DNA from: Niabella soli DSM 19437
Lineage (GTDB): Bacteria; Bacteroidota; Bacteroidia; Chitinophagales; Chitinophagaceae
Direction of reading: 5' to 3'
Assembly (NCBI RefSeq): GCF_000243115.2
Contig: NZ_CP007035.1
Coordinates: forward strand, 2,914,001 to 2,978,000
Length of the DNA: 64,000 nt
The notes under the pieces were generated by a model, which saw only the letters and a program-made list of their open reading frames with translations, was not told where the DNA came from and searched no databases. A program made the translations under genes and the position numbers. Positions 2,213 through 16,065 of the stretch are shown piece by piece. Every line of letters begins with the position of its first letter. Positions within the stretch are counted from its first letter, which is position 1.

Positions 2213-2584
2213 TTAACAGGTAATCGCTAGCTGCGCATTTATTTTAAAAAAGGTTGCTGTGTCGTTTTTGAGCGTCCCGTTAATGGTTATTGTTGCAGCG
2301 TCGGGTTGCTGATAGTTAATTGCTACAATTAACGAAGGAGTTTGCACGGGATCTACCATTGAAAGAAACTTGCATTGCGCCGCATCATTCAGGAATAATT
2401 TTTTCCCGGTTGCTTTTTCTGTCAGCTCTTTTATGATTTGCAGCATACATACGCCTGGTAATACAGGCTGTCCAGGAAAATGCCCTTCAAATATTTTATG
2501 GGCGGCGTTTAATTCTATTGTTCCGCTTATAGCTCCCGCCTGGTCTTCAAAGCTGCTAATGGTATATAAATTGTTATTCAGCAT
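2213..2584 (-). CDS. FabZ/ApeI-like hotdog dehydratase, catalytic Glu replaced by Gln
   Basis: 123-residue single hotdog domain related to 3-hydroxyacyl-ACP dehydratases. The FabZ central-helix motif is clear: HFPGQPVLPGV at residues 35-45 with the catalytic His at 35. In FabZ the catalytic Glu lies 14 residues after this His (PGVLILE); here that position is Gln49 (PGVCMLQ), so the dyad is incomplete. In aryl polyene synthesis an ApeI-type protein of this form is known to pair with ApeP. A possible partner, which has the Glu but no His, is encoded at 12295-12711. The start overlaps the upstream lipoprotein gene by 11 bp, showing translational coupling. Likely role: dehydration of 3-hydroxyacyl-ACP during polyene extension, as one half of a heterodimer. 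Confidence 0.8.
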   Translation of the reverse strand: MLNNNLYTISSFEDQAGAISGTIELNAAHKIFEGHFPGQPVLPGVCMLQIIKELTEKATGKKLFLNDAAQCKFLSMVDPVQTPSLIVAINYQQPDAATITINGTLKNDTATFFKINAQLAITC

Positions 2585-3203
2585 TATCTGTAATCATTTT
2601 CAGATCAATGGTAAAGTTAAAATTTTTATGGCGGATGTTTACAAACTCAGGCATACCGTCCATTAATGGGCCGCGTGTGGCTTCCAGCACTTTCTTCTTT
2701 GCATCGCCCCGTTCCATCCTCAGCAACTGTGCACACTTCGCATCCGTTATATAGTAATAAATGTCGGAGCCATCACGAAAAGCGTAATAATATTCATTAT
2801 TCTTTGTATAGACCTTTGCGGTAGCGGCGTTCAGGTGGTTCATCAAAACAAGCTCAAAATCCTTTTTAAGCGTTTTCTTTACCGCATCCCTATCCATTTT
2901 AGGGATAATTGAATGAACGGTAAATACTCCATTCTTTGCAAATTCAAAATCGAAAAAAGAGAATCCCACTTCATTGGTAAAAACGATGCGCGTGGAGCTA
3001 TCCGGCATTTGTTTGATCAGCAGGATACCGCTTAAATGATTGCCCACCACATCAACCGATGTTTGATACAATGCCCGTTTAACAATTGGCTTGAATTTGT
3101 CGATGCAATGATCCGTTCCTTTCGCGCTTTTCAGGTTTTTATAAGCAACCGGTGCGCAACTGTTCAGCAACGCCAGCGCACTAATTAATAACAAAAAGCG
3201 CAT
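2574..3203 (-). CDS. Lipoprotein of the pigment cluster, function unknown
   Basis: 209-residue predicted lipoprotein. The N-terminus is a short hydrophobic signal ending in a lipobox (LLNSC, Cys16), so it should be lipid-anchored in the periplasm or outer membrane. The mature part is a soluble alpha/beta sequence with no motif I recognise. It overlaps the LolA-like gene by 23 bp at its start and the dehydratase-like gene by 11 bp at its end, so it belongs to the same operon. A lipoprotein translated next to its own LolA-like carrier suggests a dedicated envelope component for pigment delivery, but that is inference. Confidence 0.75.
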   Translation of the reverse strand: MRFLLLISALALLNSCAPVAYKNLKSAKGTDHCIDKFKPIVKRALYQTSVDVVGNHLSGILLIKQMPDSSTRIVFTNEVGFSFFDFEFAKNGVFTVHSIIPKMDRDAVKKTLKKDFELVLMNHLNAATAKVYTKNNEYYYAFRDGSDIYYYITDAKCAQLLRMERGDAKKKVLEATRGPLMDGMPEFVNIRHKNFNFTIDLKMITDNAE

Positions 3204-3807
3204 CGGGTAAAGTGGTATTTAATTTTTGACCGGAATAACGGATAGTCGTATTGTCCCCTCTGGTGTCGATCATCTGCACCTCGCTCACCACAAAGCTTCC
3301 TTTTGCCATGGTTACTTTTACCTGTCTAAAAAGCGCTTTCATCTCTTTGGTAACCGGTGTCATAGCAGCCAGATAGCTGCTATTGTTCTCTAGTAATTGT
3401 ACAGAAAAATCAGGATTATCAAAAACCGTCCCTTTAATACAATCCATCATCAACTGATTGATCTGTTGAAATAGTTTGCTGGAACCGGCAGACATTTTAT
3501 TTGTTTTTTGTCCGTCCTTAATACTTACTTTATTTCCGTTCAGCACCATCAGATATTGATAAGGAGTTGTGTACTCCATGCGAACCCGGTTATCCCGTTT
3601 AAAATAAAACTTTCCTTTTGAGGTTAGTTTTTCGGAAAGCATACTCAGGCTTTTCACCTGTGTAAAATCTGCTGCAATGCTGTTTATTTTTTGGGAAGCC
3701 ACCGCAAATTGCCGTTTAATACTTGCCGCATCGCCAACGGGTTTGTATTGTGCAAAACCGGCCAACGAGAGGTCCGCAAATAATACCAATAGAAATAGTT
3801 TACGCAT
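3181..3807 (-). CDS. LolA-like outer membrane lipoprotein carrier
   Basis: About 208 residues from the ATG at 3807. A longer frame reaches 3867, but its first 20 residues lie inside the upstream deacetylase gene and lack signal character, whereas MRKLFLLVLFADLSLAGFAQ is a good signal peptide. The mature part has the LolA layout: an early 'INSIAADFTQVKSL' stretch, then RMEYTTPYQYLMVLNGNKV, the typical second strand pair of the half-barrel. LolA homologues carry lipidated proteins or lipids through the periplasm, and they are a standard part of aryl polyene and flexirubin clusters. The start overlaps the deacetylase stop by 8 bp. Confidence 0.82.
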   Translation of the reverse strand: MRKLFLLVLFADLSLAGFAQYKPVGDAASIKRQFAVASQKINSIAADFTQVKSLSMLSEKLTSKGKFYFKRDNRVRMEYTTPYQYLMVLNGNKVSIKDGQKTNKMSAGSSKLFQQINQLMMDCIKGTVFDNPDFSVQLLENNSSYLAAMTPVTKEMKALFRQVKVTMAKGSFVVSEVQMIDTRGDNTTIRYSGQKLNTTLPDALFVIN

Positions 3808-4573
3808 AGGGTTGCAAATGTACCAATTTATCCAGGGGTACCACGGTATAACCCTGCTCTTTAACATATTCTAAAAACCTGGGTAATATAAAAACCGTAG
3901 TATGTATGGTATCATGAAATAAAAAAATAGCACCGGGCTGTAACCCGTCTTTGGCTTTTTGCAGCAATTTGGATTCATCTTTTGTCACCGTGTCCATGGT
4001 GCGCACCTTCCAGCCAATCACTTTGTAATCCAGCGCCCGTGCCGCTTTGCTAACATTCGGATTAGTAACGCCATAGGGCGGCCGGAACCACTTCATATTT
4101 TTACCGGTTAACCGATAAACCAACTTCTGTAGTTGTTGCAGCTCTGCTGTCATCCGTTTGGAGGAATGCATATCGAACCAAAAATCATGGTAATAAGAGT
4201 GACTGCCAACAAGATGCCCGTCTGCAATAATTTGTTTAAACAGGCTTTCATGTGCTGCCACCCGGTAGCCGATGCAGAAGAAAGTAGCAGGCACTTCGTA
4301 TTTTTTTAAAATGGCCAATACTTCAGGAGTATGTTTTTCAATAGGTCCATCATCAAAACTGATCGCGATCTGTTTTTCTGTGGTTGTGCCCTGGCATACT
4401 GCTGGTATAAAAAACTGGGAGCCTACATAAAAACTTCCGTAAAACAACACCAGGGTATAAACCGCTATCAGCATAAAATAGCCCGACCAGTGCCAGCCCT
4501 GCTGTAGCTGCAAATAGGCAAATGCAGCCAGTAAAATCATAAAAACAAGGGTCGTATTTCGGAAGTTCAGCAT
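3800..4573 (-). CDS. NodB-domain polysaccharide deacetylase family protein
   Basis: 257 residues. Two N-terminal membrane segments (about 5-25 and 32-50) are followed by a periplasmic NodB domain. Motif 1 is SFDDGP at 72-77 (catalytic Asp and metal Asp), motif 2 is HSYYH with metal His at 125 and 129, and motif 3 is RPPYG at about 165. A family 4 carbohydrate-esterase fold is therefore intact. It lies inside the pigment operon with overlaps on both sides (8 bp with lolA, 7 bp with the chain-length-factor-like gene). Some aryl polyene and flexirubin loci contain such a gene; the substrate is not known and need not be a polysaccharide. Confidence 0.85.
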   Translation of the reverse strand: MLNFRNTTLVFMILLAAFAYLQLQQGWHWSGYFMLIAVYTLVLFYGSFYVGSQFFIPAVCQGTTTEKQIAISFDDGPIEKHTPEVLAILKKYEVPATFFCIGYRVAAHESLFKQIIADGHLVGSHSYYHDFWFDMHSSKRMTAELQQLQKLVYRLTGKNMKWFRPPYGVTNPNVSKAARALDYKVIGWKVRTMDTVTKDESKLLQKAKDGLQPGAIFLFHDTIHTTVFILPRFLEYVKEQGYTVVPLDKLVHLQPYA

Positions 4574-5595
4574 ACCGACAATAAATAAAGCGAAGGATAA
4601 TTTAGCTTATAATTATTGTAAATTAAAATTTTTCTTGGCGCAACCATCGCTGTATTTTCAGGTACTTTTCCTGTACTTATAATATTCGATGCCAGCCACA
4701 GTGCAAACGCCGATGAAGTCGGATATTCACCACAATATTGTTTATAGGTGATTGCTGGTTTGTTTTCAAACAGCAACCGGTTTATATGGTTGTAATGCCG
4801 GCTATACCGGTTATCGCCATTGTCGCCCGTAATAACCAGGTCGATATCATTCACCGATATGCCCTGACCGGCCATAAACGATTCAATGAGATCTGTTATT
4901 TCCCCGGTGGGTTTATAAAATGTTTGCATGGCATCCAGCTTTGCCATTGCATTTACCGGTTTATTTTTATCCAGCAGGAAAAAAGCAGCGCCTTCTCCGG
5001 CTATGGTTCCCCGGGTGCCGCTACCAATAAGCATTTCGGAGGCGCCGTCTGTTTTATACAGATCAAACCGCCGCAATATTGCGTGGCTGTGCTCAATAAT
5101 TTCGTCCACCCCACCTATCAATACTTTTTCCGCATCGCCTTCATTGATCAGGCTTACAGCATCCAGCAATGCCGCTTCAAAAGAATTGCCCCGGTGCACA
5201 TAGGTATTGTTATAATTGTGGCATTTCAGTTGCAGTGCTATCTGTGCCCCTACGGTATTATGTGTGGATTGAATAAATGCCGTAGGCGATAACAATTCTT
5301 CCTTAAACTCCACCATGCGCGTCAGGAACTGATCCGTATCTGCCAGGCAGCCATAAGCCGTTCCCGTCACGATCGCATCAGGATTTTTTTCCTGTGCAGC
5401 CTGTAAACATTCCATAGCCGCCGACGCTCCCATTTTTATAATACGGCTCATGCGGCGGATCAGTTTTGGGTCGATGTATTTGGTATAATCCGGCTCTTTA
5501 CAGGCGAACCGTTCTCCTGTATATCGTTCAGGGTTTGCCAGCAATGCGTCAAAAGACACCTGCGGGGAAACGGCATATGTGGAATGAATATACAA
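4567..5595 (-). CDS. Ketosynthase-like chain length factor, no active-site Cys
   Basis: 342-residue thiolase-fold protein related to beta-ketoacyl-ACP synthases. It has both halves of the fold, but the nucleophile position is lost: where active KSs read TACSS, this protein reads HRGNSFEA at about 134-141. The HGTGT and KxxxGH motifs are also missing. That is the pattern of a chain length factor, which pairs with an active KS to set polyene length. The adjacent gene at 5619 encodes a KS with all three catalytic residues, 23 bp upstream. The start is a TTG at 5595; an in-frame stop lies just upstream and there is no ATG in the right region, while the start MYIHSTYAVSPQ fits this protein class. 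Confidence 0.82.
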   Translation of the reverse strand: MYIHSTYAVSPQVSFDALLANPERYTGERFACKEPDYTKYIDPKLIRRMSRIIKMGASAAMECLQAAQEKNPDAIVTGTAYGCLADTDQFLTRMVEFKEELLSPTAFIQSTHNTVGAQIALQLKCHNYNNTYVHRGNSFEAALLDAVSLINEGDAEKVLIGGVDEIIEHSHAILRRFDLYKTDGASEMLIGSGTRGTIAGEGAAFFLLDKNKPVNAMAKLDAMQTFYKPTGEITDLIESFMAGQGISVNDIDLVITGDNGDNRYSRHYNHINRLLFENKPAITYKQYCGEYPTSSAFALWLASNIISTGKVPENTAMVAPRKILIYNNYKLNYPSLYLLSVC

Positions 5596-5618
5596 AATGC
5601 AGAATTAAGATTTAAAAT

Positions 5619-6818
5619 CTAGAATATTGTTCGGGAAAAAATAAGCGCACTGCAATTACCGCCAAATCCAAAGGAGTTGGACAGCACATGATCGATCTTT
5701 TTCTGTTCAAGTACCGTAGTAACTGTAAACGGCAATTCTTTAATGGGCGTTTGCAACCGCAGATTGGGGAACACCAATCCTTCCCGGATGGCCAGCAGGG
5801 CGTAAACCGCCTCAATGGCTCCACTTGCTCCCAAAGTATGCCCTGTAAAGGATTTGGTGGAGCTCATAGCCGGGTACCGCCCCTGGAACAGTTGCGCAAT
5901 AGCTGCTCCCTCTGAGCTATCATTATTATTGGTGCCCGTACCGTGCAGGTTTATATAATCAATATCCGACGGCTGAAGTTTCGCTTTTTTTAGGGCGCCC
6001 TCCATTGCCAATAAGTTGCCCTTCCCTTCGGGTGATGAGGCTGTTTGGTGATGCGCATCGTTTGCATTTGCCCAGCCGGTTATTTGAGCAACCGGTTGCT
6101 CCTTCAGCGTTGCCGCCACTTTGGGCGACACCAAAACCAGGTAGGCCGCCCCCTCACCTAAATTTAACCCGCGCCGGTTCTCATCAAAGGGCTGACAATA
6201 TTCCTGATCCAGTATCATCAAAGTATTAAACCCATTTAAAGTAAAGCGGGTCAGCGCATCGGTACCGCCTGCAATGACCACATCCAATTGCCCCTGGCGG
6301 ATCATTCGCGCTCCCAGGAAGATACTATTGGCCGATGAAGAACAGGCGGTGCTAATGGTAGTTACAAAATCTTTTACTCCGAGTACATCTGCAACAATTT
6401 CTGTAACGGCTCCGCATTCATGGTTTACCACCATCTGCAGATCGCCTTCACCTGCATTCTGTAAAAATTCAGGAAAAAAATCTTCGGTTTTATCCATTCC
6501 CCCCACAGAGTTGGCAGAAATAAACCCTGTGCGCCATTGAGAAAGATCGATCCCTGAACTGAGGATCGCTTCTTTCGCAGCAACCGCGCTTAATAATGCG
6601 GTACGGCTGATCTGCGCAGGCAGGGCCGCGAGCGCCGCCAGCTCCTCGTTGGATAAGGGTACTTCTGCAACCGGCAAGGCATCTTTATGAACGGATTGTA
6701 ACCGCTGCATCGGACGTATACCTGCCTTCCCGGCCTTCAAAGACTCCAGGTTCTCCGCCACGTTATTTCCAATGGCTGAAATAATACCTGTACCTGCTAT
6801 ATAAACCGAATGACTCAT
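5619..6818 (-). CDS. Beta-ketoacyl-ACP synthase (KS, FabF-like), catalytically complete
   Basis: 399 residues, full-length condensing enzyme. Catalytic Cys159 lies in STACSSSA, His292 in HGTGT, and His327 in SFTGHTLGA, so the Cys-His-His triad is present. It catalyses decarboxylative condensation of malonyl-ACP with the growing acyl chain. It sits between the ACP gene (31 bp upstream) and the Cys-less partner (23 bp downstream), which suggests a KS-CLF pair like ApeO-ApeC of aryl polyene synthesis. ATG at 6818 gives the usual KS N-terminus (VYIAGTGIISAIG). Confidence 0.9.
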   Translation of the reverse strand: MSHSVYIAGTGIISAIGNNVAENLESLKAGKAGIRPMQRLQSVHKDALPVAEVPLSNEELAALAALPAQISRTALLSAVAAKEAILSSGIDLSQWRTGFISANSVGGMDKTEDFFPEFLQNAGEGDLQMVVNHECGAVTEIVADVLGVKDFVTTISTACSSSANSIFLGARMIRQGQLDVVIAGGTDALTRFTLNGFNTLMILDQEYCQPFDENRRGLNLGEGAAYLVLVSPKVAATLKEQPVAQITGWANANDAHHQTASSPEGKGNLLAMEGALKKAKLQPSDIDYINLHGTGTNNNDSSEGAAIAQLFQGRYPAMSSTKSFTGHTLGASGAIEAVYALLAIREGLVFPNLRLQTPIKELPFTVTTVLEQKKIDHVLSNSFGFGGNCSALIFSRTIF

Positions 6819-6849
6819 TATCTAAATTTGACTATTCATCATTGCCTAT

Positions 6850-7122
6850 TCACTTTTCACTTTCCTGATGTTCCAGGATATAATCAGCCATCGTGCTTAC
6901 CGAACGGAACACATCCTGTCCCTCTTCCGCACTCTTTAATTTGATATTATACTCCTGCTGCAGCAAAACGATCAACTCCAGCGCATCAATCGAATCTAAT
7001 CCCAAACCTTCCACAAACAGCGGATCATGATCACCGATATCTTCCGGTTTTTTATCCTCCAGTCTCAATTGTTTAATGATCTGTTCTTTCAGGTGTTGTA
7101 TTAACTCTTGCTTATTTTCCAT
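6850..7122 (-). CDS. Acyl carrier protein
   Basis: 90-residue acidic four-helix ACP. The phosphopantetheine attachment site is GLDSIDALE, with Ser44 as the modified residue. The helix II face that meets partner enzymes (DALELIVLLQQEY) is well conserved. It should carry the growing polyene or its starter in the pigment pathway. The start overlaps the upstream half-KS gene by 11 bp, so the two are probably translated together. A second ACP is encoded at 14579-14830, so loading and extension may use different carriers. Confidence 0.93.
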   Translation of the reverse strand: MENKQELIQHLKEQIIKQLRLEDKKPEDIGDHDPLFVEGLGLDSIDALELIVLLQQEYNIKLKSAEEGQDVFRSVSTMADYILEHQESEK

Positions 7123-7741
7123 AATCTTTTTTATAAATTCGATCCAGGTTTTCAGGGGTAAAGGTACTGCTTCGCTCCGGTGCTTCCTGCTCTACAAGGA
7201 ACAGACAGCCATCCAGCCGGTCGTCCAAAACATCCGCCCAGCCGCAAATGCAGGCTTTCAACAGGTTGCGGTCCATAAGATCCGAAACGTACCAGTGAAG
7301 CCATTCCGCATCAAACGCATCGGATACAAAGAACGCATTTTCGCCTTTGAATTTATAGCGAATGCACAGTTCGCCGATCACGATATTCGGCAACGTATAA
7401 ACAAACAACGCCGGGCTTGGATATTCCTTTGAGGCTTCCCAGTATTGCGCATCGGCCTCAATGCTGCCATTGCGATTGCTGAATACCAGGCCAGTTTCTT
7501 CAGGCTTATAAAGCGTTGCAGCAAAGCTACTTTTCAATAACACATCCGTCGCAACCAGGCCCATTTTACTCAACGCATCCATCTTGTAAAACCGGGGATA
7601 GTCTACACCCAGATGCTCGTAGGCCCCCTTTAAAAAGGTTACGGATTTCTCCTGCGACCTGAAAACAACAGTATTGTCTTTTACAATAATTCCATTGCGC
7701 ACGATAGCTGTTGCTGTAATATAGTATCCTGTTTCGCTCAC
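7112..7741 (-). CDS. Half-length ketosynthase-like protein (N-terminal KS domain), no active Cys
   Basis: 209 residues, about half the length of a KS. The segment NIVIGELCIRYKFKGENAFF, then a helix and 'KACICGWADVL', matches the KS core around the active site (normally 'A..IA..FGLKGPN', the Cys loop, and 'AGGADAL'), but the Cys loop reads VSDAFDAEW. It therefore cannot condense. The length resembles the short KS-like N-terminal domain family to which ApeC-type chain length factors belong. The start is a GTG at 7741, 6 bp after the halogenase-like gene. It could be a second CLF or a scaffold. The family call is moderate; the role is inferred. Confidence 0.68.
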   Translation of the reverse strand: MSETGYYITATAIVRNGIIVKDNTVVFRSQEKSVTFLKGAYEHLGVDYPRFYKMDALSKMGLVATDVLLKSSFAATLYKPEETGLVFSNRNGSIEADAQYWEASKEYPSPALFVYTLPNIVIGELCIRYKFKGENAFFVSDAFDAEWLHWYVSDLMDRNLLKACICGWADVLDDRLDGCLFLVEQEAPERSSTFTPENLDRIYKKDYGK

Positions 7742-7747
7742 ACCCCG

Positions 7748-9019
7748 TTATCCCTTTTCTTTAAACCCGTTATTAATATATTCAATACTATCGCGCAATT
7801 TGATAGTCTTTGCCAGTTTTTTTAAAGCGGTATCATGCTCCCTTACATACGTATTATCCGTATCCCATACATACCCTGCCAAAACGGAGCAGATCATTTT
7901 CTTAATATCCGGATTTTGATCTTTGGCAAAAAAGATCGTATGCAAAGTAGTATCATACCATCCCATCACATAACTCCTGAAGGTATTAACGCCCTGCATC
8001 ATGACTTCGGTATATTCCTTTTCCCAATCCACTTTTTCGCCTTGAAGCTGCCGTACCACCAGTTTACCCGCGATCTGACTGGAAACAGTGGCCAGTGTTA
8101 CACCCGATGAAAATACCGGATCAAGGAACTCCGTTACATTTCCTGTAAGCACAAACCCGTTCCCGAAAAATTTCTCTGTGGTGGCCGACCAGGATTGCAG
8201 TACGCGGGGCTCCCATAAATATTCAATGCCCTTCATGCGTTCGGCAATATAGGGTTCGTCGGCTATTAAGCTGCGCATGATCTCTTCCGGCGATCCTGAA
8301 TATTTTTCAAAGAAAGCGGGATCCCCTACAAACCCAACGGACGTAATGCCGGTGGCAAAAGGAATGATCCAAACCCAAATGTCTGGCTTGTGTACTACGA
8401 TAGTAATACGGTCCGGCTCATCATCCATTTGCCGGTTCACATCTTTTGTATGCACAAAAACAGCCTTACGCGGAGGCAGGTTAGAAGGTTTATCCAACCC
8501 GAACAAACGGGGAATCACCCGGCCATAACCGCTCCCATCAATAATAAATTTCGCCTCTATCTGTTTTTCATCGCCCTGTGCGTCTGTTATGGTGGTTACC
8601 GAAGAGCCATCGTCATTAAATTTAATTGCCGTTACTGTTGTCTCATAATCTATAGGCACTCCTTTCGCTTCCAGCCCGTCGGCCAGCGCCTTGTCAAAAT
8701 CCGCACGGGTTACCTGGTAGGCATGATCCCATCCATCCGTAAACTGATCGGAGAAAGAATAATCGCAGATCACCCCATCCCGGACAAACTTGGCACCGGT
8801 CTTTCGCTGAAAACTCTGTTCCAGCACGCTATCCAGCAATTCCGCCTCTTCCAGGGCTTCCATACAGCGGGGTAACAGGCTTTCCCCAATCACAAAACGG
8901 GGGAATTTCATTTTTTCCACCACGCGTACCTTGTAGCCCGCTTTGTTAACGATAGCTCCGGCTACGGTTCCGGCCGGGCCGGCGCCGATCACCAATACAT
9001 CTGTTTTTTCAGTTTGCAT
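7748..9019 (-). CDS. FAD-dependent halogenase/monooxygenase-like oxidoreductase
   Basis: 423 residues. The N-terminal Rossmann motif GAGPAG is at 12-17, followed by FPRFVIGESLLP (about 39-50), the block typical of flavin-dependent halogenases of the CmlS and tryptophan-halogenase superfamily. WVWIIP at 215-220 fits the WxWxIP motif used to separate halogenases from ordinary flavin monooxygenases. Some flexirubins carry chlorine on the aromatic ring, so ring halogenation is a reasonable role. A hydroxylase with a halogenase-like fold cannot be excluded from sequence. A reduced-flavin supply would come from elsewhere, as no flavin reductase is seen nearby. Confidence 0.82.
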   Translation of the reverse strand: MQTEKTDVLVIGAGPAGTVAGAIVNKAGYKVRVVEKMKFPRFVIGESLLPRCMEALEEAELLDSVLEQSFQRKTGAKFVRDGVICDYSFSDQFTDGWDHAYQVTRADFDKALADGLEAKGVPIDYETTVTAIKFNDDGSSVTTITDAQGDEKQIEAKFIIDGSGYGRVIPRLFGLDKPSNLPPRKAVFVHTKDVNRQMDDEPDRITIVVHKPDIWVWIIPFATGITSVGFVGDPAFFEKYSGSPEEIMRSLIADEPYIAERMKGIEYLWEPRVLQSWSATTEKFFGNGFVLTGNVTEFLDPVFSSGVTLATVSSQIAGKLVVRQLQGEKVDWEKEYTEVMMQGVNTFRSYVMGWYDTTLHTIFFAKDQNPDIKKMICSVLAGYVWDTDNTYVREHDTALKKLAKTIKLRDSIEYINNGFKEKG

Positions 9020-9035
9020 ACAGTTTTATTTTACG

Positions 9036-9560
9036 TTACAAGTCCTCGCTTGTTTTAAACCCAATCCTTACTCTTTGTTTTTGCGCTGTTTCTATTTTGT
9101 CTTTTTTCAATAAATAATTCAATGCCTCATAAATATCCTTGAATTGTTTATTGTATTTGCGTTCTATTCTCTTCAACTTTTCCGTCAGGTCTTTATGCTC
9201 AAAAGCGAATTTTTTTAATGCAACAAAAGCCTCAACAATTGCTATATTTACTTTGATGGCCTTCTCGCTTTTTAAAACACCGGCAAGCATTGTTACTCCG
9301 TGCTCTGTAAACGCAAAAGGTGTGACCTTTGTGTTCCTTTTATTTTGACCTGATGCGGTCGCAAATTGCGACCGCATCTTCTCCCACTCCGCCACGGTCA
9401 GCCGGAACATAAAAGATGCAGGAAATCTTTCGATATTGCGTTTGACAGCTTCATTCAGTCTTTTTGTTTCCACTTCATATAATATAGCCAGATCAAAATC
9501 CAACATTATCTTTTGTTTCCGGACTTCGTAGATTTTATTTTGTATATCCTGTAATTCCAT
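9036..9560 (-). CDS. ORF6N domain protein inserted in the pigment operon
   Basis: 174 residues. The N-terminal two-thirds is an ORF6N domain, with the typical flow 'IYEVRKQKIMLDFDLAILYEVETKRLNEAVKRN' (broken here by position: about 10-42), then FPASFMFRLT and FAFTEHGVTMLAGVLKS (about 102-118). The C-terminus is a charged helical tail. ORF6N proteins occur in phages and widely as orphan genes in Bacteroidota and are thought to bind DNA; their role is poorly known. It has the same orientation as its neighbours and fits tightly (16 bp and 23 bp gaps), but it has no place in pigment chemistry and is more AT-rich, so it looks like an insertion. A palindrome precedes its start. Confidence 0.88.
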   Translation of the reverse strand: MELQDIQNKIYEVRKQKIMLDFDLAILYEVETKRLNEAVKRNIERFPASFMFRLTVAEWEKMRSQFATASGQNKRNTKVTPFAFTEHGVTMLAGVLKSEKAIKVNIAIVEAFVALKKFAFEHKDLTEKLKRIERKYNKQFKDIYEALNYLLKKDKIETAQKQRVRIGFKTSEDL

Positions 9561-9561
9561 A

Positions 9562-9579
9562 GTAGCAACATTGTGCTAC
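9562..9579. promoter_or_regulatory. Palindrome directly upstream of the ORF6N gene
   Basis: GTAGCA-ACATTG-TGCTAC, perfect 6-bp arms around a 6-bp centre, placed 1 bp upstream of the ATG at 9560. It occupies most of the 23-bp gap to the methyltransferase stop. The position suits an operator or a translation-start hairpin; autoregulation by the ORF6N protein is only a guess. Confidence 0.4.
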
Positions 9580-9583
9580 AAAT

Positions 9584-10666
9584 TTAGCTTTTCTTTTTAC
9601 ATTTCAGCAGCGTGTGGCTTAGCCCGATCCCGCTGATCTCTTCCACGATCTCAAAGCCCGCTTTTGCTATACACTTCTTAAATACACGCGAATCATACAT
9701 CTGACTGTTGCCATTGGCGATTGCCGTAAAATAGATGGATAGTTGCTGAATGCAGAATGCAGAGGTTTCAAAGCGCTGATTATCCCAAAAGGCTTCCAGG
9801 ATATAAACAGATCCGTCCGCATTCAATGCCTGGCCGCAGCGTTGCAGGATCGAAACAATTTCATCCTCCGAAAAACAATCCAGGAACTGGCTCATCCACA
9901 CACCGTCATATCCGGTTGGAAAAACGACCGAAGCCTCCAGCACATTTGCGGGGTAAAAATCTACCCGGTCGCTCAATCCTAACTTTTCAATGTTTTCCTT
10001 TGCCATATCCGCCTGGCCCGGCAAATCCATAATTGTAATGTGGACGTCTCTATCAAATGCTGTGGATGCCAATGCCCATTTGCCGGTATTGCCGCCTATT
10101 TCCAGTAAGCGTTTTATATGATTCTCGGGTTTATAAATATGTTTCAGTACCAGGGGGAATGCGATATCTGAAAAGAAATGATCATATTCAAACCAGCTTT
10201 TCTGCTGGCGCGGATTCAACTGCGATAATCCCTCATATACGGTATTCCAATTACCCAATTCTTTCAAGCCTTCCGGCTTGCCGGTGTTTACAGATTCCTC
10301 CAAATGAAACATGCCTTTATAGCAGATATCCTGCACAAAACTCATGTTCACATTGGTGAGCGGGTCATGGAGAATAAAGTATCCTGTTTTGGTCAGCACA
10401 AACTTCTCGTCATCTGTGTATTTCACCAATTGCATACCCAGCGCGGCTTCCAGCAATACCCTTGCCCCATATTCCGGCACACCCGTTTTTTCACAAATAG
10501 CTGTTAAAACAATGCCTTCTTTATGAGCAGCGTCAATCACGCTTAAAATATTTTTATCCCTAAGGACGCGTGCCACCTGGAAAACAATAGGACCATGCGC
10601 AATAACCTGTGCCATATGTTTTGCCTGCATGGCCGAAAGGTGTTCTTTTTTGTAAAAGTCGATCAT
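9584..10666 (-). CDS. SAM-dependent methyltransferase, O-methyltransferase type
   Basis: 360 residues. The N-terminal half is a helical dimerisation/winged-helix-like region (about 10-100), as in plant-type O-methyltransferases and antibiotic-tailoring enzymes. The C-terminal half is a Rossmann-like domain with SAM motif I LLEIGGNTGKW at about 187-197 and the acidic ribose ligand Asp214 in TIMDLPG. Such enzymes methylate hydroxyl groups on aromatic or polyketide substrates, so methylation of the pigment's aryl head is plausible. It lies 29 bp downstream of a ketosynthase gene, inside the operon. Confidence 0.83.
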   Translation of the reverse strand: MIDFYKKEHLSAMQAKHMAQVIAHGPIVFQVARVLRDKNILSVIDAAHKEGIVLTAICEKTGVPEYGARVLLEAALGMQLVKYTDDEKFVLTKTGYFILHDPLTNVNMSFVQDICYKGMFHLEESVNTGKPEGLKELGNWNTVYEGLSQLNPRQQKSWFEYDHFFSDIAFPLVLKHIYKPENHIKRLLEIGGNTGKWALASTAFDRDVHITIMDLPGQADMAKENIEKLGLSDRVDFYPANVLEASVVFPTGYDGVWMSQFLDCFSEDEIVSILQRCGQALNADGSVYILEAFWDNQRFETSAFCIQQLSIYFTAIANGNSQMYDSRVFKKCIAKAGFEIVEEISGIGLSHTLLKCKKKS

Positions 10667-10695
10667 TAAAAAATTTATGGTTTTTTGTTATTCGT

Positions 10696-11841
10696 TTATT
10701 GTTGACGGTCTTTAATTTTTTCAATTATAATCGCCGCATTGCAGCCACCAAATCCTGAAGTTGTTTTCAGGCATGCACGAATCGGCTTCCTGATGAGCTC
10801 CCGGCAAACATTCAACGGCATTACCGTTCCGGGCTCTTCATACCCTTTAGTAGGGATGATCGTATTGTTTCCCAGCGATTCGATACTGATCACTGCTTCC
10901 AGTAATCCGGCAGCGCCCAGTGTATGTCCATAATATCCCTTGAGGCTATTCACCGGCACCTCCTGTAGCTGCGCCAGGTTAATGGCCCGGCTTTCCATAT
11001 CATCATTATACAAAGTTGCGGTGCCGTGTGCGGAGATAAAATCAATTGCGGCAGCAGGACTCCCGGCTTCTTTTAGGGCGCGGTCGATCGCCATAAATAA
11101 TTCTTCACCTGTTCTTGATGGACCTGAAATATGATTGGCATCATTACTTACCCCGCCGCCGCTGATCATTATCGGTTCCGCGGATGCCGGCACTTCAGTA
11201 GAAAGTACCAGCGTTGCAGCCCCTTCTCCAAGATTGATGCCTTTTCGCTGGGCATCAAAAGGCCGGCACAATTCATCACTTACGGCGTGAAAGGATTGGA
11301 AGCCCGAAAGAATAAAACGGGAGATCACATCAGCCCCGGCCACCACAACCGTTTTAAATTTGCCCGCGTCCAGTAAGCGCTTTGCTGTAATAATTGCCAG
11401 CGTACCGGAAATGCAGGCATGGGAAACAATAACCGGTTTATTTTGAAACCCAAAATGCCGGGCCAGTTTTTGCGCCGATGCGGTTAACCCTATTTCCTGT
11501 TTCAGTACTTCAGTAACCGGCTGATGCTCCAACAGGCTGATGTTTCCCTTGGTAGAAGAAAGGACCAATGCAGTATCAGCAGCTTTTGTATCGATTCCCG
11601 CCAGTTTTACGGCATCTTCAATGGATGCAGCCAAAATGTTTTCAAAACGTGTAAAGGGTGCCTGCTGTTTTTTGAAAAAGAGGTCCTCAAATAATGCCGC
11701 ACAAAACGGAACCTCACTTTGCTGCGGATCCTGATGTACCTTAACGCCTGTTACATTTTTACAAAGGGCATCAAAATTTTCCTTAGCCGTTGTTCCAAGG
11801 GGAGAGAAAATATTTTGCGATAGAACGTACACTTTCTTCAT
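10696..11841 (-). CDS. Beta-ketoacyl-ACP synthase, second active KS of the cluster
   Basis: 381 residues. Cys143 lies in SHACISGT, His272 in AHGTAT and His306 in YYGHTLGA, giving a complete catalytic triad in a slightly divergent KS. Compared with the KS at 5619 the loop before the Cys is shorter and the HGT motif is less canonical, so it may act on another chain length or on the starter unit, like ApeR in aryl polyene clusters. The start codon overlaps the stop of the thioesterase gene in an ATGA of 4 bp. Confidence 0.88.
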   Translation of the reverse strand: MKKVYVLSQNIFSPLGTTAKENFDALCKNVTGVKVHQDPQQSEVPFCAALFEDLFFKKQQAPFTRFENILAASIEDAVKLAGIDTKAADTALVLSSTKGNISLLEHQPVTEVLKQEIGLTASAQKLARHFGFQNKPVIVSHACISGTLAIITAKRLLDAGKFKTVVVAGADVISRFILSGFQSFHAVSDELCRPFDAQRKGINLGEGAATLVLSTEVPASAEPIMISGGGVSNDANHISGPSRTGEELFMAIDRALKEAGSPAAAIDFISAHGTATLYNDDMESRAINLAQLQEVPVNSLKGYYGHTLGAAGLLEAVISIESLGNNTIIPTKGYEEPGTVMPLNVCRELIRKPIRACLKTTSGFGGCNAAIIIEKIKDRQQ

Positions 11842-12263
11842 GCGCCGGTAAGGTGCTTTTTCTTCCAGTCTTCAAAAAAAGGCGGGTTATTTAATAATAA
11901 GGTCTGGCTGTCTTTTTCAAGAAAGACCTGCGTGGTGGTACCGGTAGCCACCAGTTTTTTTGTTGTTCCGTGATACAGCTTGTAATTAAAAATGATCTTT
12001 GCTGCTTCACAGGGCAGATAAATTGTTTCTACCAGCACGGTATCTCCAAATCGCAACGATTGCTTATAGTTACATTCCGCATGCACAATGGGAACGACCA
12101 CTCCCGCTGCAAAAAAATCAAGATAGCCTAACCCATATTCCTTTCCAAAAGCCTCACGACCATCTTCAAAATAGCGAATATAATGGCCATGCCATACAAT
12201 ACCCAGTGGGTCCGCCTCGTTAAAGCGAATCAAAACCTCGACCGTATTTTTTAACTCCTTCAT
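11838..12263 (-). CDS. Acyl-CoA/ACP thioesterase of the 4-hydroxybenzoyl-CoA thioesterase (4HBT) hotdog family
   Basis: 141-residue single hotdog domain. The 4HBT active-site segment is visible near the N-terminus: RFNEADPLGIVWHGHYIRYF, with the catalytic Asp18 followed by GIVWHG. Enzymes of this kind hydrolyse acyl-CoA or acyl-ACP thioesters. In this cluster it could release misprimed intermediates or hydrolyse the starter thioester, a job given to ApeK-like enzymes in aryl polyene loci. The stop overlaps the next KS start by 4 bp. Confidence 0.85.
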   Translation of the reverse strand: MKELKNTVEVLIRFNEADPLGIVWHGHYIRYFEDGREAFGKEYGLGYLDFFAAGVVVPIVHAECNYKQSLRFGDTVLVETIYLPCEAAKIIFNYKLYHGTTKKLVATGTTTQVFLEKDSQTLLLNNPPFFEDWKKKHLTGA

Positions 12264-12294
12264 TATCTATTTCCCCCCGTGAATGTAATTTGTG

Positions 12295-12711
12295 TTATCC
12301 GGCAGTAAAAATGCGCATTTCGCAGGAGGCGATTACCGCCTCCTGTATAGAGATGGTTCCTTCAACGATCGTTGCATTAAAGATCTGGTTTTTGACCGTA
12401 ATGGTGGTTGTTAACAACTCCCCTGCTTTTGGCAAGCGGGCTATTTTTAATTGTTGTACCGCGCCGATAAAACCCACCGGAACCGGTTTATTTTCCTGCC
12501 GGCAAATATAGCCCATGTGTGCCGCCGCTGTTTGTGCAATATTTTCCACCAAACCGGGTTCCGTAAACAGCCCTTCTGCTACCAGGATATTGCCTTCCGG
12601 TACCAGGAACTGTGTAGTGGCGCTGGTAGCGTCACACTGTTCCAGCGTTTGCACCATTACGAAGGGAGCTCTTTGCGGGAGGTATGGTAAAATATCACTA
12701 GCTATACTCAT
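12295..12711 (-). CDS. ApeP-like hotdog dehydratase, catalytic Glu kept, His missing
   Basis: 138 residues from the ATG at 12711; an in-frame ATG at 12744 adds 11 residues without homology character. The fold is FabA/FabZ-like: LPQRAPFVMVQTL at the start, then the central helix EPGLVENIAQTAA, where Glu56 matches the FabZ catalytic Glu (E-x-x-A-Q). Upstream of it, where FabZ has GHFPG, this protein has no His at all between residues 26 and 64. It is thus the complement of the protein at 2213-2584, which has His35 but Gln in place of Glu. FabZ active sites form across the dimer interface, so the two may make one working heterodimeric dehydratase. Confidence 0.78.
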   Translation of the reverse strand: MSIASDILPYLPQRAPFVMVQTLEQCDATSATTQFLVPEGNILVAEGLFTEPGLVENIAQTAAAHMGYICRQENKPVPVGFIGAVQQLKIARLPKAGELLTTTITVKNQIFNATIVEGTISIQEAVIASCEMRIFTAG

Positions 12712-12811: not shown

Positions 12812-13705
12812 CTAATTTTTGCCGCCTTTACTCCAAAATGGGTAATAATTATACCATTGATCAGGATAAGTCTGTACTTTCTGCTCCGTTTGCATCACAA
12901 AATCAGCCAGGATATACTCGGGCGCTCCTTTTTCCCCGCGGTCGCTGTACACGATACCGGGCGTTGCAAAAAAATGATAATGCGCCGTTGTTTCTTTCAT
13001 TGCAAAAACAAAGGATACCGGCACTTGCAGCTTTGCGGCAATAATAAATGGCCCGGCGGGGAACCGTGCCGGTTCTCCCAAAAAAGGGGCGTTCAATGTT
13101 TTATTGCCCGGCAAAAACCTATCAGCATGCATGCAGACCAGCTCATTATTATTTAACGCCTCCATTATGGCGTATATGTGTGCAATAGCATCTTTTATAA
13201 CAATAATATTCGCATTACGCTCACCCGTTACGCTATTGAGGTATTCTTTTATCTGTTGTTGCTCCCCATCGTACATAACGATATTAATACGGGTATTCAA
13301 TCGCTTTAATAAATGCCCGGCTATTTCCCAATTGCCAATATGGGCACTCAGCAATAGCCCCCCTTTGCCGGAGGCCACCATTTGGTGCAGATGCGCTTCC
13401 CCGTCAAAATCAAACGTGAAGTTATTTTTAATACCGCTCATCAGCACAATTCGGTCTATTAAAGCTTGCCCAAACCAGTAATAATTACGATAGCGCGCCC
13501 GGGTGGCCTTAAACCCTGACAAATGCAGCCGCTCCCTGAGATAATAATTTATTGCCCCGTTCGATTGGCGGCTGAACAAAAAATAATACCCCGCCACGAA
13601 ACGCAACAAGAAATAAGCAGGCGCCGTGCCGCCCCATTTCAGTAAAGCAATAAAGATGCGGTAACCGGTTGTATTGGCTTTTGAACGTCCGTCCCAGCTT
13701 GACAT
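12812..13705 (-). CDS. LpxL/HtrB-like lysophospholipid acyltransferase
   Basis: 297 residues. An N-terminal membrane-proximal hydrophobic region (about 15-45) precedes the catalytic block SAHIGNWEIAG at 120-130, matching the HX4E motif of LpxL-type acyltransferases (His122, Glu127). A CMHADR stretch later supports the family. In lipid A synthesis such enzymes transfer an acyl chain from ACP. In aryl polyene and flexirubin clusters a homologue is thought to esterify the finished polyene onto a lipid or resorcinol. It is the first gene of the long operon that runs down to 1661, and a good -7 box lies 27 bp upstream of its start. Confidence 0.88.
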   Translation of the reverse strand: MSSWDGRSKANTTGYRIFIALLKWGGTAPAYFLLRFVAGYYFLFSRQSNGAINYYLRERLHLSGFKATRARYRNYYWFGQALIDRIVLMSGIKNNFTFDFDGEAHLHQMVASGKGGLLLSAHIGNWEIAGHLLKRLNTRINIVMYDGEQQQIKEYLNSVTGERNANIIVIKDAIAHIYAIMEALNNNELVCMHADRFLPGNKTLNAPFLGEPARFPAGPFIIAAKLQVPVSFVFAMKETTAHYHFFATPGIVYSDRGEKGAPEYILADFVMQTEQKVQTYPDQWYNYYPFWSKGGKN

Positions 13706-13748: not shown

Positions 13749-14264
13749 TCACAATGCACCCCTGTTTTTTCTTTTCTTAAACCGAAGAAAAGTGATAATC
13801 AGAAGATAAAAAAGACCAATAGCAAGACTGGAAACAAAACAGCCATCATAAGGAACCTTATTGTAGAAGATAGTGTATATGCCATCATTGCAAACAGTGC
13901 AGCCTGCTGGCAATAAAGAACTTTGTGCCCAGGAAATCAGAACGGTACTGGCAATAAACAGAAGAAGAATGATTATGAGGTGTAGAAGCCAATCTCTTTT
14001 GAAATAATTTCGCAACAACCAAAAAGCCACCGGAACAAAAATAGAAAATCCATATACTACCTTTAACATAGGAAATAAGTGGAACGGCTTCCCGGCAAAT
14101 TTGAGATGGCTTCCATTAAATCGTTTCATAAGGCGGGTGACCCACTGCCAATACAGCTGATCAATAAAAGTACTGCTCCAGGCAGCAACAAGAATGAGCA
14201 AAACAAAAACAGCAGTTGTTAGTATTCGATTGCTTGTGTTTGGCAAACCAGAATTTGTTCCCAT
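13749..14264 (-). CDS. Uncharacterised membrane protein
   Basis: 171 residues with about four transmembrane segments (roughly 14-31, 69-84, 90-112, 143-160) and a basic C-terminal tail (RFKKRKNRG). I recognise no family. Between segments 3 and 4 a CTVC pair is followed by DGIY. It separates the acyltransferase from the ACP/KS pair of the pigment cluster and its flanks are AT-rich, so it may not belong to the pathway. The uniform membrane-protein composition and clear start argue that it is a real gene. Confidence 0.6.
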   Translation of the reverse strand: MGTNSGLPNTSNRILTTAVFVLLILVAAWSSTFIDQLYWQWVTRLMKRFNGSHLKFAGKPFHLFPMLKVVYGFSIFVPVAFWLLRNYFKRDWLLHLIIILLLFIASTVLISWAQSSLLPAGCTVCNDGIYTIFYNKVPYDGCFVSSLAIGLFYLLIITFLRFKKRKNRGAL

Positions 14265-14578: not shown

Positions 14579-14830
14579 TTAGGCCGCTTCTTTTTTCTGG
14601 ATCTGCTCCCGGATATAGTTATAGAAATCGTTAAAGGTGACCAATGGCAGAAAGTCGCCGGGCTGCACTTTAAAATGAAAGTTGCTTTCCAGGGCAACTA
14701 CCAGGTCAATATAATCAAGACTATCAAGGTCCAATACTTCCTTAAGATGCGCCTCCGGTTGAATCAATTCAGCATCCGCCTCAAATTCCTCAATCAGAAA
14801 GTCGTTTGTTGTTTTTACTATTTTTTCCAT
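14579..14830 (-). CDS. Acyl carrier protein, second of the cluster
   Basis: 83 residues from the ATG at 14830. A longer frame (14854) would begin inside the KS gene. The attachment site is LDLDSLDYIDL with Ser37. The helix II sequence is acidic (DLVVALESNF), as usual for ACP-partner recognition. It starts 8 bp downstream of the KS stop, so the two form a pair. Different from the ACP at 6850 in the sequence around the Ser, which supports separate tasks. Confidence 0.92.
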   Translation of the reverse strand: MEKIVKTTNDFLIEEFEADAELIQPEAHLKEVLDLDSLDYIDLVVALESNFHFKVQPGDFLPLVTFNDFYNYIREQIQKKEAA

Positions 14831-14838
14831 GCTTAGCA

Positions 14839-16065
14839 TTAGTGCTGCTTCCACTTTTTAACGATTAGGGTGGAGTTGGTACCTCCAAACCCAAAAGAAT
14901 TCGACAAAAATACGTCTATATTTTTATTAGCAGTCTTTTTCACAATATTTAGGGAGGCGGAATCGGCATCGGGATGCTCAAAATTGATATTGGGGGCTAT
15001 GAAACTATGTTCCATCATAATACTGGAATACACGATCTCACTGGCGCCGGCCATCCAGCATTCATGTCCGGTCATTGATTTTGTGGAACTTACGGGCGTA
15101 TGACAGCCAGCAAATACTTCATTTATCGCCTTTGCCTCACTGGCGTCCCCCGCAGGCGTGCTCGTGGCGTGTGCATTGATATAGTCGATTACGCCGGGTT
15201 CGAGTGCCGCATCCTGCAGTGCCATCCGTAAAGATTTGGCTGGCCCGGCTACGGTCGGGTTCGAAATATGCTCCCCGTTGGAAGAAAACCCATAACCGAT
15301 AATTTCGCCGATAATTGTAGCCCCGCGTTTTTGTGCCGATTCCAGGCTCTCCAGGATCACGGTGGCCGCTCCGCCGCTGGGAATCAGCCCATCCCGGTCC
15401 TTATCAAAGGGGCGGGAGGCCTTTTCGGGTATCTCTTCCCGGACTGAAAAGGCTCCTAATGCATCAAAAGTACCCATAGACAGGTGATTGATCTCCTGCG
15501 CGCCTCCGGCTACGATACATTGCTGCAGCCCCATCTTTATTAAAATATAAGCAAGCCCGATGGCGTGGGAACCGCTGGCACAGGCCGCGCTTACCGTAAG
15601 ATTGATCCCTTTCAGCTTAAAAATAGTGGCCAGGTTCATAGTTACCGTAGAATTCAGGGTTTGAAACACGGCCGCTGACCCCACCAGCTGGGTGTCCTTT
15701 TTTTCCCGGATCAGATCAGTGGATTCGATGACCGCTTTTGCAGAACTGTCGTTCCCGTAAAGAATACCCGGCTCCATTTTCACCAGGTCGGCTTCTGTTA
15801 AACCGGCTTCTTTTAACGCTTCCACTGTTGCCATGTAAGCATATTCGCCTTCCTCCGGCAACATGATGCGGGAGCGCCGATCCAACAGCCCTTTTAAAGA
15901 GGGCCGCTCCACAAAACCCGTCAGGGCCGAACGGTACCCGAATGCCTTGCGTACCGGGTCAAAGATGATCCCCGATTTCCCGTTATACAACGAATCCTTT
16001 ACTTCCCGCAGGTTTTTACCCAGGCAGGAGTAGATGCCGCGCCCTGTTATCACTACTCGGTTCAT
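14839..16065 (-). CDS. Beta-ketoacyl-ACP synthase, third active KS
   Basis: 408 residues, full-length FabB/FabF-type condensing enzyme. Cys162 lies in SAACASGSHA, His299 in NAHATST and His334 in MTGHECWMAG. All catalytic residues are present, and the GFGGTNS C-terminal loop is intact. Of the three active KSs in the cluster, this one is closest to ordinary type II fatty acid enzymes. It starts a two-gene unit with the ACP at 14579. The ATG at 16065 has a -7 box only 5 nt upstream, so its mRNA may be nearly leaderless. Confidence 0.9.
   Translation of the reverse strand: MNRVVITGRGIYSCLGKNLREVKDSLYNGKSGIIFDPVRKAFGYRSALTGFVERPSLKGLLDRRSRIMLPEEGEYAYMATVEALKEAGLTEADLVKMEPGILYGNDSSAKAVIESTDLIREKKDTQLVGSAAVFQTLNSTVTMNLATIFKLKGINLTVSAACASGSHAIGLAYILIKMGLQQCIVAGGAQEINHLSMGTFDALGAFSVREEIPEKASRPFDKDRDGLIPSGGAATVILESLESAQKRGATIIGEIIGYGFSSNGEHISNPTVAGPAKSLRMALQDAALEPGVIDYINAHATSTPAGDASEAKAINEVFAGCHTPVSSTKSMTGHECWMAGASEIVYSSIMMEHSFIAPNINFEHPDADSASLNIVKKTANKNIDVFLSNSFGFGGTNSTLIVKKWKQH

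What the first reader, a model, noticed from the sequence alone, without database searches (positions are those of the whole stretch)
2213..12711. Two hotdog dehydratases with complementary halves of one active site
The protein at 2213-2584 keeps the FabZ catalytic His (His35 in HFPGQP) but has Gln49 where FabZ has Glu, at the exact 14-residue spacing. The protein at 12295-12711 keeps the Glu (Glu56, E-x-x-A-Q helix) but has no His in the matching region. FabZ-type sites are built across the dimer interface with one residue from each chain, so a heterodimer could restore one full dyad. From memory, aryl polyene ApeI and ApeP form such a heterodimer; here the residue loss would force it.
Basis: partly seen in the sequence, partly recalled or inferred. 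Interest (0 to 1): 0.7.

Follow-up and report, generated by a model that had tools for sequence, protein, structure and literature searches.

The report
Probable split-site flexirubin pigment dehydratase
Two small proteins in a bacterial pigment gene cluster each keep only one of the two catalytic residues of a water-removing enzyme, and they are the relatives of a known two-part enzyme (ApeI:ApeP), so they very probably work only as a pair.

Summary
S (2213-2584, minus strand) has His35 and, 14 residues on, Gln49 where FabZ has Glu. F (12295-12711, minus strand) has Glu56 and lacks the FabZ catalytic His. Both lie in a flexirubin-type aryl-polyene cluster of a Niabella-like bacterium. In relatives, S keeps His in 77 of 77 rows (one paralogue dropped), with position +14 being Q 67, E 8, L 1, A 1; F keeps Glu in 102 of 102, with a gap in the FabZ His column. 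S and F occur together: 49 of 50 F-positive and 0 of 97 F-negative family genomes, and the same 33 of 345 Bacteroidota genomes. Profiles and a tree place S with ApeI and F with ApeP, whose heterocomplex is solved (PDB 6qsr) and described as having one active site. So this is the flexirubin version of ApeI:ApeP. New here: nine of nine sampled ApeI keep an Asp beside the His, whereas most Bacteroidota S have Gln, so neither chain has a complete dyad. Physical association and activity were not tested.

The parts
2213..2584 (-). S: ApeI-type hotdog subunit (123 aa), His35 kept, Gln49 in place of the acid; flxS-like by order (inference)
12295..12711 (-). F: ApeP-type hotdog subunit (138 aa), Glu56 kept, FabZ His absent; flxF-like by order (inference)
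11838..12263 (-). 4HBT-type thioesterase directly downstream of F (third hotdog-type protein; not part of the proposed dyad)
10696..11841 (-). beta-ketoacyl synthase of the cluster
9584..10666 (-). O-methyltransferase-type protein
7748..9019 (-). FAD-dependent halogenase/oxidoreductase-like protein
6850..7122 (-). acyl carrier protein
5619..6818 (-). beta-ketoacyl synthase
4567..5595 (-). ketosynthase-like protein matching N-terminal KS domain models only (chain-length-factor-like, inferred)
3800..4573 (-). polysaccharide deacetylase-like protein
3181..3867 (-). LolA-like carrier
2574..3203 (-). protein with no Pfam match at E 0.001, between LolA and S (its ORF overlaps both slightly)
12812..13705 (-). 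lipid A-type acyltransferase
14579..14854 (-). acyl carrier protein
14839..16065 (-). beta-ketoacyl synthase

Best explanation
S and F are the two subunits of one heterodimeric 3-hydroxyacyl-ACP dehydratase that forms a double bond in each cycle of polyene elongation in flexirubin synthesis. It is the Bacteroidota form of ApeI:ApeP. S supplies the catalytic His and F the catalytic Glu across the dimer interface, giving one active site per heterodimer; the second site (S Gln49 facing F, which has no His) is dead. Shown here: residues, conservation, orthology to ApeI and ApeP, co-occurrence, cluster context, predicted hotdog folds. Inferred: physical pairing, geometry, activity, substrate.
For: Residues. 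Orthology: S~ApeI E 1.5e-18 vs S~FabZ 1.4e-12; F~ApeP 2.1e-22 vs F~FabZ 3.9e-15; S and F, and ApeI and ApeP, do not match each other. Tree: S+ApeI 98/95, F+ApeP 100/96. Same split in ApeI (H and D, 9 of 9) and ApeP (E 9 of 9; no His in the FabZ His column in the alignment). The F model (pLDDT 94.8) matches 6qsr_B of 'The Dehydratase Heterocomplex ApeI:P' with the highest query-normalised TM-score of the 50 rows shown (0.91, 1.4 A; second by E-value). Co-occurrence: 49 of 50 and 0 of 97; the same 33 of 345. F and S are adjacent in G473, and in G476 overlap by ATGA if S starts at the ATG. The own genome's only other place found by the fabZ model is the LpxC-FabZ fusion. [quoted passage not shown]
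Against: No complex was modelled or measured. The 50 Foldseek rows shown for S are FabZ and FabA, without 6qsr_A. Pfam's ApeI-like model scores S at 15 bits, below its 28.5 cut-off, while the FabA-like model passes (32.4 against 23); no Pfam model hits F at E up to 1. Single-sequence scores separate ApeI from FabZ, and ApeP from FabZ, only slightly. In 8 of 77 S rows the acid is Glu, so those chains could make a full homodimeric dyad. One of nine ApeP (L268) has a loop His in the FabZ His column in one of two alignments (not). In 28 of 50 family regions fetched around F, S was not within the stretch; it lies farther off, on another contig or (G142) was not found. In 23 of 33 Bacteroidota genomes there are two F genes for one S, which a one-to-one model does not explain.
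Confidence: 0.87

Rival explanations
1. S and F each form homodimers with separate roles (for example S a weak dehydratase using His and water with Gln, F an isomerase or acyl-binding protein using Glu only).
For: FlxF and FlxS are both named as dehydratase in the proposed C. pinensis pathway, with no word of a complex in the passages read (PMC3992019). PDB entry 3esi has four chains of one ApeI-like sequence (E 1.8e-40 to E. coli ApeI); whether other chains are in the entry was not checked. S and F genes are 4.4-12.4 kb apart or farther in most genomes. F is duplicated in 23 of 33 genomes.
Against: Orthology to the ApeI:ApeP heterocomplex; S and F occur in the same genomes; adjacency in G473 and G476; neither window chain has a full dyad.
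Confidence: 0.07
2. S and F are relaxed, non-catalytic remnants and polyene dehydration is done by the housekeeping LpxC-FabZ.
For: The genome has one FabZ over the family cut-off.
Against: His in 77 of 77 S rows and Glu in 102 of 102 F rows is not decay. In E. coli, which has FabZ (control list), the passages read name the ape mutants that still make APE-related compounds (apeA, B, D, F, J, K, R) and apeI and apeP are not among them (PMC8253772); the figure that gives the apeI and apeP results was not seen.
Confidence: 0.03
3. A HadAB-like arrangement: both catalytic residues come from one subunit and the other only binds substrate.
For: HadAB is a heterodimeric hotdog dehydratase with a single site (PMC4491049, passages).
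Against: In HadAB the His-Asp dyad is all on HadB; here no single chain holds both (window S has no acid there, F has no His in the site). Possible only for the few S with E or D.
Confidence: 0.03

Closest known systems
ApeI:ApeP dehydratase of aryl-polyene clusters (PDB 6qsr, Xenorhabdus doucetiae)
   Same: Two hotdog subunits, His on one and Glu on the other, in an aryl-polyene cluster; orthologous by profiles and tree; F model matches 6qsr_B at TM 0.91.
   Different: ApeI keeps Asp at +14 in 9 of 9 sampled; window S and 67 of 77 S rows have Gln. S is below the Pfam ApeI-like cut-off and F is not hit by ApeP-like. Window F has a shorter loop before the Glu than E. coli ApeP.
FabZ homodimer
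   Same: Hotdog fold, same catalytic columns, His and Glu' from two chains (HpFabZ His58 and Glu72', PMC2692856, passages).
   Different: FabZ carries both residues in each chain (own LpxC-FabZ); S and F carry one each.
Mycobacterial HadAB
   Same: Heterodimeric hotdog dehydratase with a single active site (PMC4491049, passages).
   Different: Both catalytic residues sit on HadB; no split across subunits; hydratase-2 motif.
FlxF and FlxS of Chitinophaga pinensis
   Same: Named as dehydratase of a flexirubin cluster (PMC3992019, passages); probably the orthologues of F and S by gene order (inference, sequences not compared).
   Different: Not described as one two-part enzyme in the passages read.

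Membership tests
ApeI:ApeP-type heterodimeric dehydratase | Orthology of F with ApeP | tested here: met
   hhalign 2.1e-22 vs 3.9e-15 for FabZ, tree 100/96, TM 0.91 to 6qsr_B
ApeI:ApeP-type heterodimeric dehydratase | Orthology of S with ApeI | tested here: met
   hhalign 1.5e-18 vs 1.4e-12 for FabZ, tree 98/95
ApeI:ApeP-type heterodimeric dehydratase | S model closest in fold to ApeI (6qsr_A) | tested here: inconclusive
   6qsr_A not among the 50 rows shown; FabZ and FabA chains fill them
ApeI:ApeP-type heterodimeric dehydratase | Pfam ApeI-like and ApeP-like curated cut-offs | tested here: not met
   S 15 bits against 28.5; F no hit at E up to 1. This lowers membership in those two Pfam entries; the relation itself rests on the profile and tree tests
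ApeI:ApeP-type heterodimeric dehydratase | Catalytic His on one chain, Glu on the other, His lost from the Glu chain | tested here: met
ApeI:ApeP-type heterodimeric dehydratase | Asp at His+14 in the ApeI chain | tested here: not met
   Gln49 in the window; Q 67, E 8, L 1, A 1 of 77. A difference; whether the Asp is needed is not known from any call
ApeI:ApeP-type heterodimeric dehydratase | Located in an aryl-polyene gene cluster | tested here: met
   KS, ACP, LolA, acyltransferase, methyltransferase, thioesterase around; an ammonia-lyase 38 kb before the window
ApeI:ApeP-type heterodimeric dehydratase | Physical heterodimer with dehydratase activity | not testable with these tools
   no complex prediction or bench assay available
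FabZ | His and Glu in one chain, score above the NCBIfam cut-off | tested here: not met
   S 30.8 and F 29.9 bits against a cut-off of 113; one residue each
HadAB | Both catalytic residues on one subunit | tested here: not met
   split between S and F

The most novel reading that the evidence does not exclude
Flexirubin bacteria have turned the ApeI:ApeP enzyme into an obligate, fully complementary pair in which neither chain can be active alone, and in genomes with tandem F1 and F2 one His subunit (S) is shared by two different Glu subunits, making two dehydratases, for example for early and late chain lengths.
Probability: 0.25. Interest if true: 0.55.

Novelty: new variant of a known kind. 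Interest (0 to 1): 0.42.

Why it matters
It identifies the likely dehydratase of flexirubin synthesis as one two-part enzyme rather than two dehydratases, extends the ApeI:ApeP architecture across Bacteroidota beyond what the Pfam models catch, and gives a natural system in which catalytic complementation across a hotdog interface is complete and can be tested directly by mixing two proteins that should each be inactive.

Tried and rejected
Considered and rejected: that Gln49 or the missing His is a sequencing or annotation artefact (conserved in relatives); that another acid or His fills the site (in F the FabZ His column is a gap in 102 of 102; 10 of 102 F and 2 of 9 ApeP have a His within 3 alignment columns of it, the window's F not); that the thioesterase 11838-12263 supplies the missing half (4HBT/YbgC type).

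28 of 100 F rows have some His in the 24 residues before the Glu (one of these, L138, is a wrong motif hit). In 11 it stands 15 residues before the Glu, followed by L or V. I looked at these because 3 of the 6 same-family genomes whose S has Glu also have it. In the alignment it falls in the strand before the FabZ His; the overlap was only eyeballed, not tested.

Weak controls: the 12 FabZ rows were picked in the script by a pattern that requires the His and the acid, so their 12 of 12 is by construction; three sub-cut-off places (L277, L289, L290) fell out at that step. The nine ApeI and ApeP come from E. coli and 8 plasmid records out of the 25 (ApeI) and 26 (ApeP) records with a match.

The first combined tree script stopped on a grouping error of mine and its F line counted FabZ rows in; one search replaces it.
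Full report
WHAT IS THERE. The window is bases 2914001-2978000 of a 4,697,343-base single-contig genome. The nearest named relatives of F are two Niabella MAGs (82% and 75% identity), so the host is Niabella or close to it (records very near the window's genome may be left out of that search). On the minus strand from about 16 kb down to 2.2 kb runs an aryl-polyene cluster: ketosynthases, two ACPs, an acyltransferase, F, a thioesterase, a methyltransferase, a halogenase-like FAD protein, a polysaccharide deacetylase, a LolA-like carrier, a protein without a Pfam match, and S. This is compatible with the flx cluster of Chitinophaga pinensis as far as the passages of PMC3992019 tell it (ketosynthases, dehydratase FlxF and FlxS, and a deacetylase, acyltransferase and LolA within FlxP-FlxU). 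Calling the genes flxF-like and flxS-like is an inference from order; the C. pinensis sequences were not compared.

THE RESIDUES. S reads HFPGQPVLPGVCMLQ, His35 and Gln49, where the genome's own LpxC-FabZ reads HFPQNPVMPGVLQIE. F has Glu56 in VENIAQ. Aligned with 12 FabZ proteins, its Glu is in the FabZ Glu column and the FabZ His column is a gap. A fabZ-model search of the own genome gives only three places at E up to 1: LpxC-FabZ, S and F.

CONSERVATION. Among 78 distinct S rows from the family and phylum searches, one paralogue without the GHF motif (L116, from G062, which also has an ordinary S) was dropped. The other 77 have His in 77, and at +14 Q 67, E 8, L 1, A 1. Of the 80 named-contig loci, 24 hold S within the fetched flank: the script read Q 20, E 1 (L255) and D 1 (L262, Flammeovirga) from 22 of them (the second D in its counter is E. 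coli ApeI); the last two, L250 and L265, were read by eye as Q. F has Glu in 102 of 102 rows and a gap in the FabZ His column in 102 of 102; the pattern count gave 99 of 100 because it hit a wrong motif in L138, and the fragment L081 was left out. On a tree of 81 S and 9 ApeI rows His never changes, while acid/non-acid changes at least 8 times. So one half of the site is fixed in each chain and the other half is free to change or be lost.

CO-OCCURRENCE. In 147 genomes of the family, F is found in 50. Strong S matches (84.9 bits or more; the next match is 34.2, and matches below that lie almost all in LpxC-FabZ-sized frames) are in 49 of those 50 and in none of the other 97; the exception, G142, is 60% complete. 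In 345 Bacteroidota genomes of at least 90% completeness, F (91 bits or more; next 37.3) is in 33 and S (71 bits or more; next 38.7) in the same 33; five of these were also in the first set. S is on the same strand as F and 4.4-12.4 kb away in all 22 family regions in which both fell within the fetched stretch, of 50 regions with F; in the rest S is farther off or on another contig. In G473 the two genes are neighbours (15 bases between the ORFs); in G476 they overlap by ATGA if S starts at its ATG (the tool's first start is a TTG nine bases earlier).

ORTHOLOGY. Nine ApeI and nine ApeP sequences were taken from Pseudomonadota clusters: E. coli and 8 plasmid records of the 25 and 26 with a match. 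Profile comparison: S~ApeI E 1.5e-18, S~FabZ 1.4e-12; F~ApeP 2.1e-22, F~FabZ 3.9e-15; S and F do not match each other, nor do ApeI and ApeP. Single-sequence scores are less clear-cut: the S profile gives ApeI a median of 41.5 bits and FabZ 38.1, the F profile gives ApeP 45.7 and FabZ 41.0. In a 78-row tree, S+ApeI form one side of a branch at 98/95 and F+ApeP at 100/96; the program warned of few columns, long branches and an unsettled bootstrap. E. coli ApeI finds the S of Aureispira directly at 6e-5. ApeI has H and D in 9 of 9; ApeP has E in 9 of 9 and no His in the FabZ His column, though the alignment puts a loop His of L268 there. The 12 FabZ rows were chosen by a pattern that requires the dyad, so their 12 of 12 is no independent control.

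STRUCTURE. AlphaFold models: F pLDDT 94.8, S 93.9. The F model's best query-normalised TM-score among the 50 rows shown is to 6qsr_B, titled 'The Dehydratase Heterocomplex ApeI:P from Xenorhabdus doucetiae' (0.91, 1.4 A; second by E-value). The 50 rows shown for S are FabZ and FabA; 6qsr_A is not among them. By sequence, the ApeI proteins 3esi_A and 6qsr_A rank second and third for the S profile, and 6qsr_B eleventh for the F profile. No complex could be modelled.

HOW IT WORKS. In FabZ the site is His58 and Glu72', the prime marking the other chain (PMC2692856, passages). Applied to S:F, His35 of S and Glu56 of F form one site; S Gln49 and the missing His of F make the other site dead. [quoted passage not shown] The residue split, orthology and co-occurrence are shown here; the complex, its geometry and activity are inferred.

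WHAT IS KNOWN AND WHAT IS NEW. The architecture is known from ApeI:ApeP. What I did not find in the held library (0 papers with heterodimer, dehydratase and flexirubin; listing of 5 papers; listing of 3) is that flexirubin clusters carry orthologues of both subunits, that these co-occur almost without exception, and that the leftover acid of ApeI is replaced mostly by Gln, so that neither chain has a full dyad. Most subscription papers are not in that library. The conserved Gln (67 of 77) may have a structural role; this was not tested. Unexplained: two F genes per S in 23 of 33 Bacteroidota genomes, all 23 second copies with Glu, and S with Glu in six same-family genomes, where S is over 400 kb from F (two) or on another contig of a draft (four).

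VERDICT. It is a variant of a known enzyme, of moderate interest.

Noticed in passing
L126-L146, L148, L182, L184, L186, L187: F is tandem-duplicated in 23 of 33 F-positive Bacteroidota genomes; the second copies keep the Glu. In the three genomes put into the tree, the second copy branches deeper in the F group.
   Followed up: partly
L094, L097, L101, L102, L109, L113, L147, L180: S proteins with Glu instead of Gln at His+14 (8 of 77); in the six same-family cases S is far from F or on another contig.
   Followed up: partly
L116:289-669: Second S paralogue in G062 that lost the GHF motif but has Glu at the acid position: the mirror image of the usual S.
   Followed up: no
L043, L046, L052, L044, L064, L057, L069, L050, L055, L051, L048: F proteins with a His 15 residues before the Glu, where the window's F and many others have Asn.
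   Followed up: partly
window 9036-9560 (-): ORF6N-domain gene, with a weak phage Rha-type match, sitting inside the pigment cluster between the methyltransferase and the FAD protein.
   Followed up: no
own genome 2874586-2876007 and 2101749-2103104: Two aromatic ammonia-lyases outside the window; the first lies 38 kb before the window start and may belong to the same pigment pathway.
   Followed up: no
window 7112-7741 (-), 2574-3203 (-), 13749-14264 (-): Three proteins in the cluster region without a Pfam match at E 0.001.
   Followed up: no
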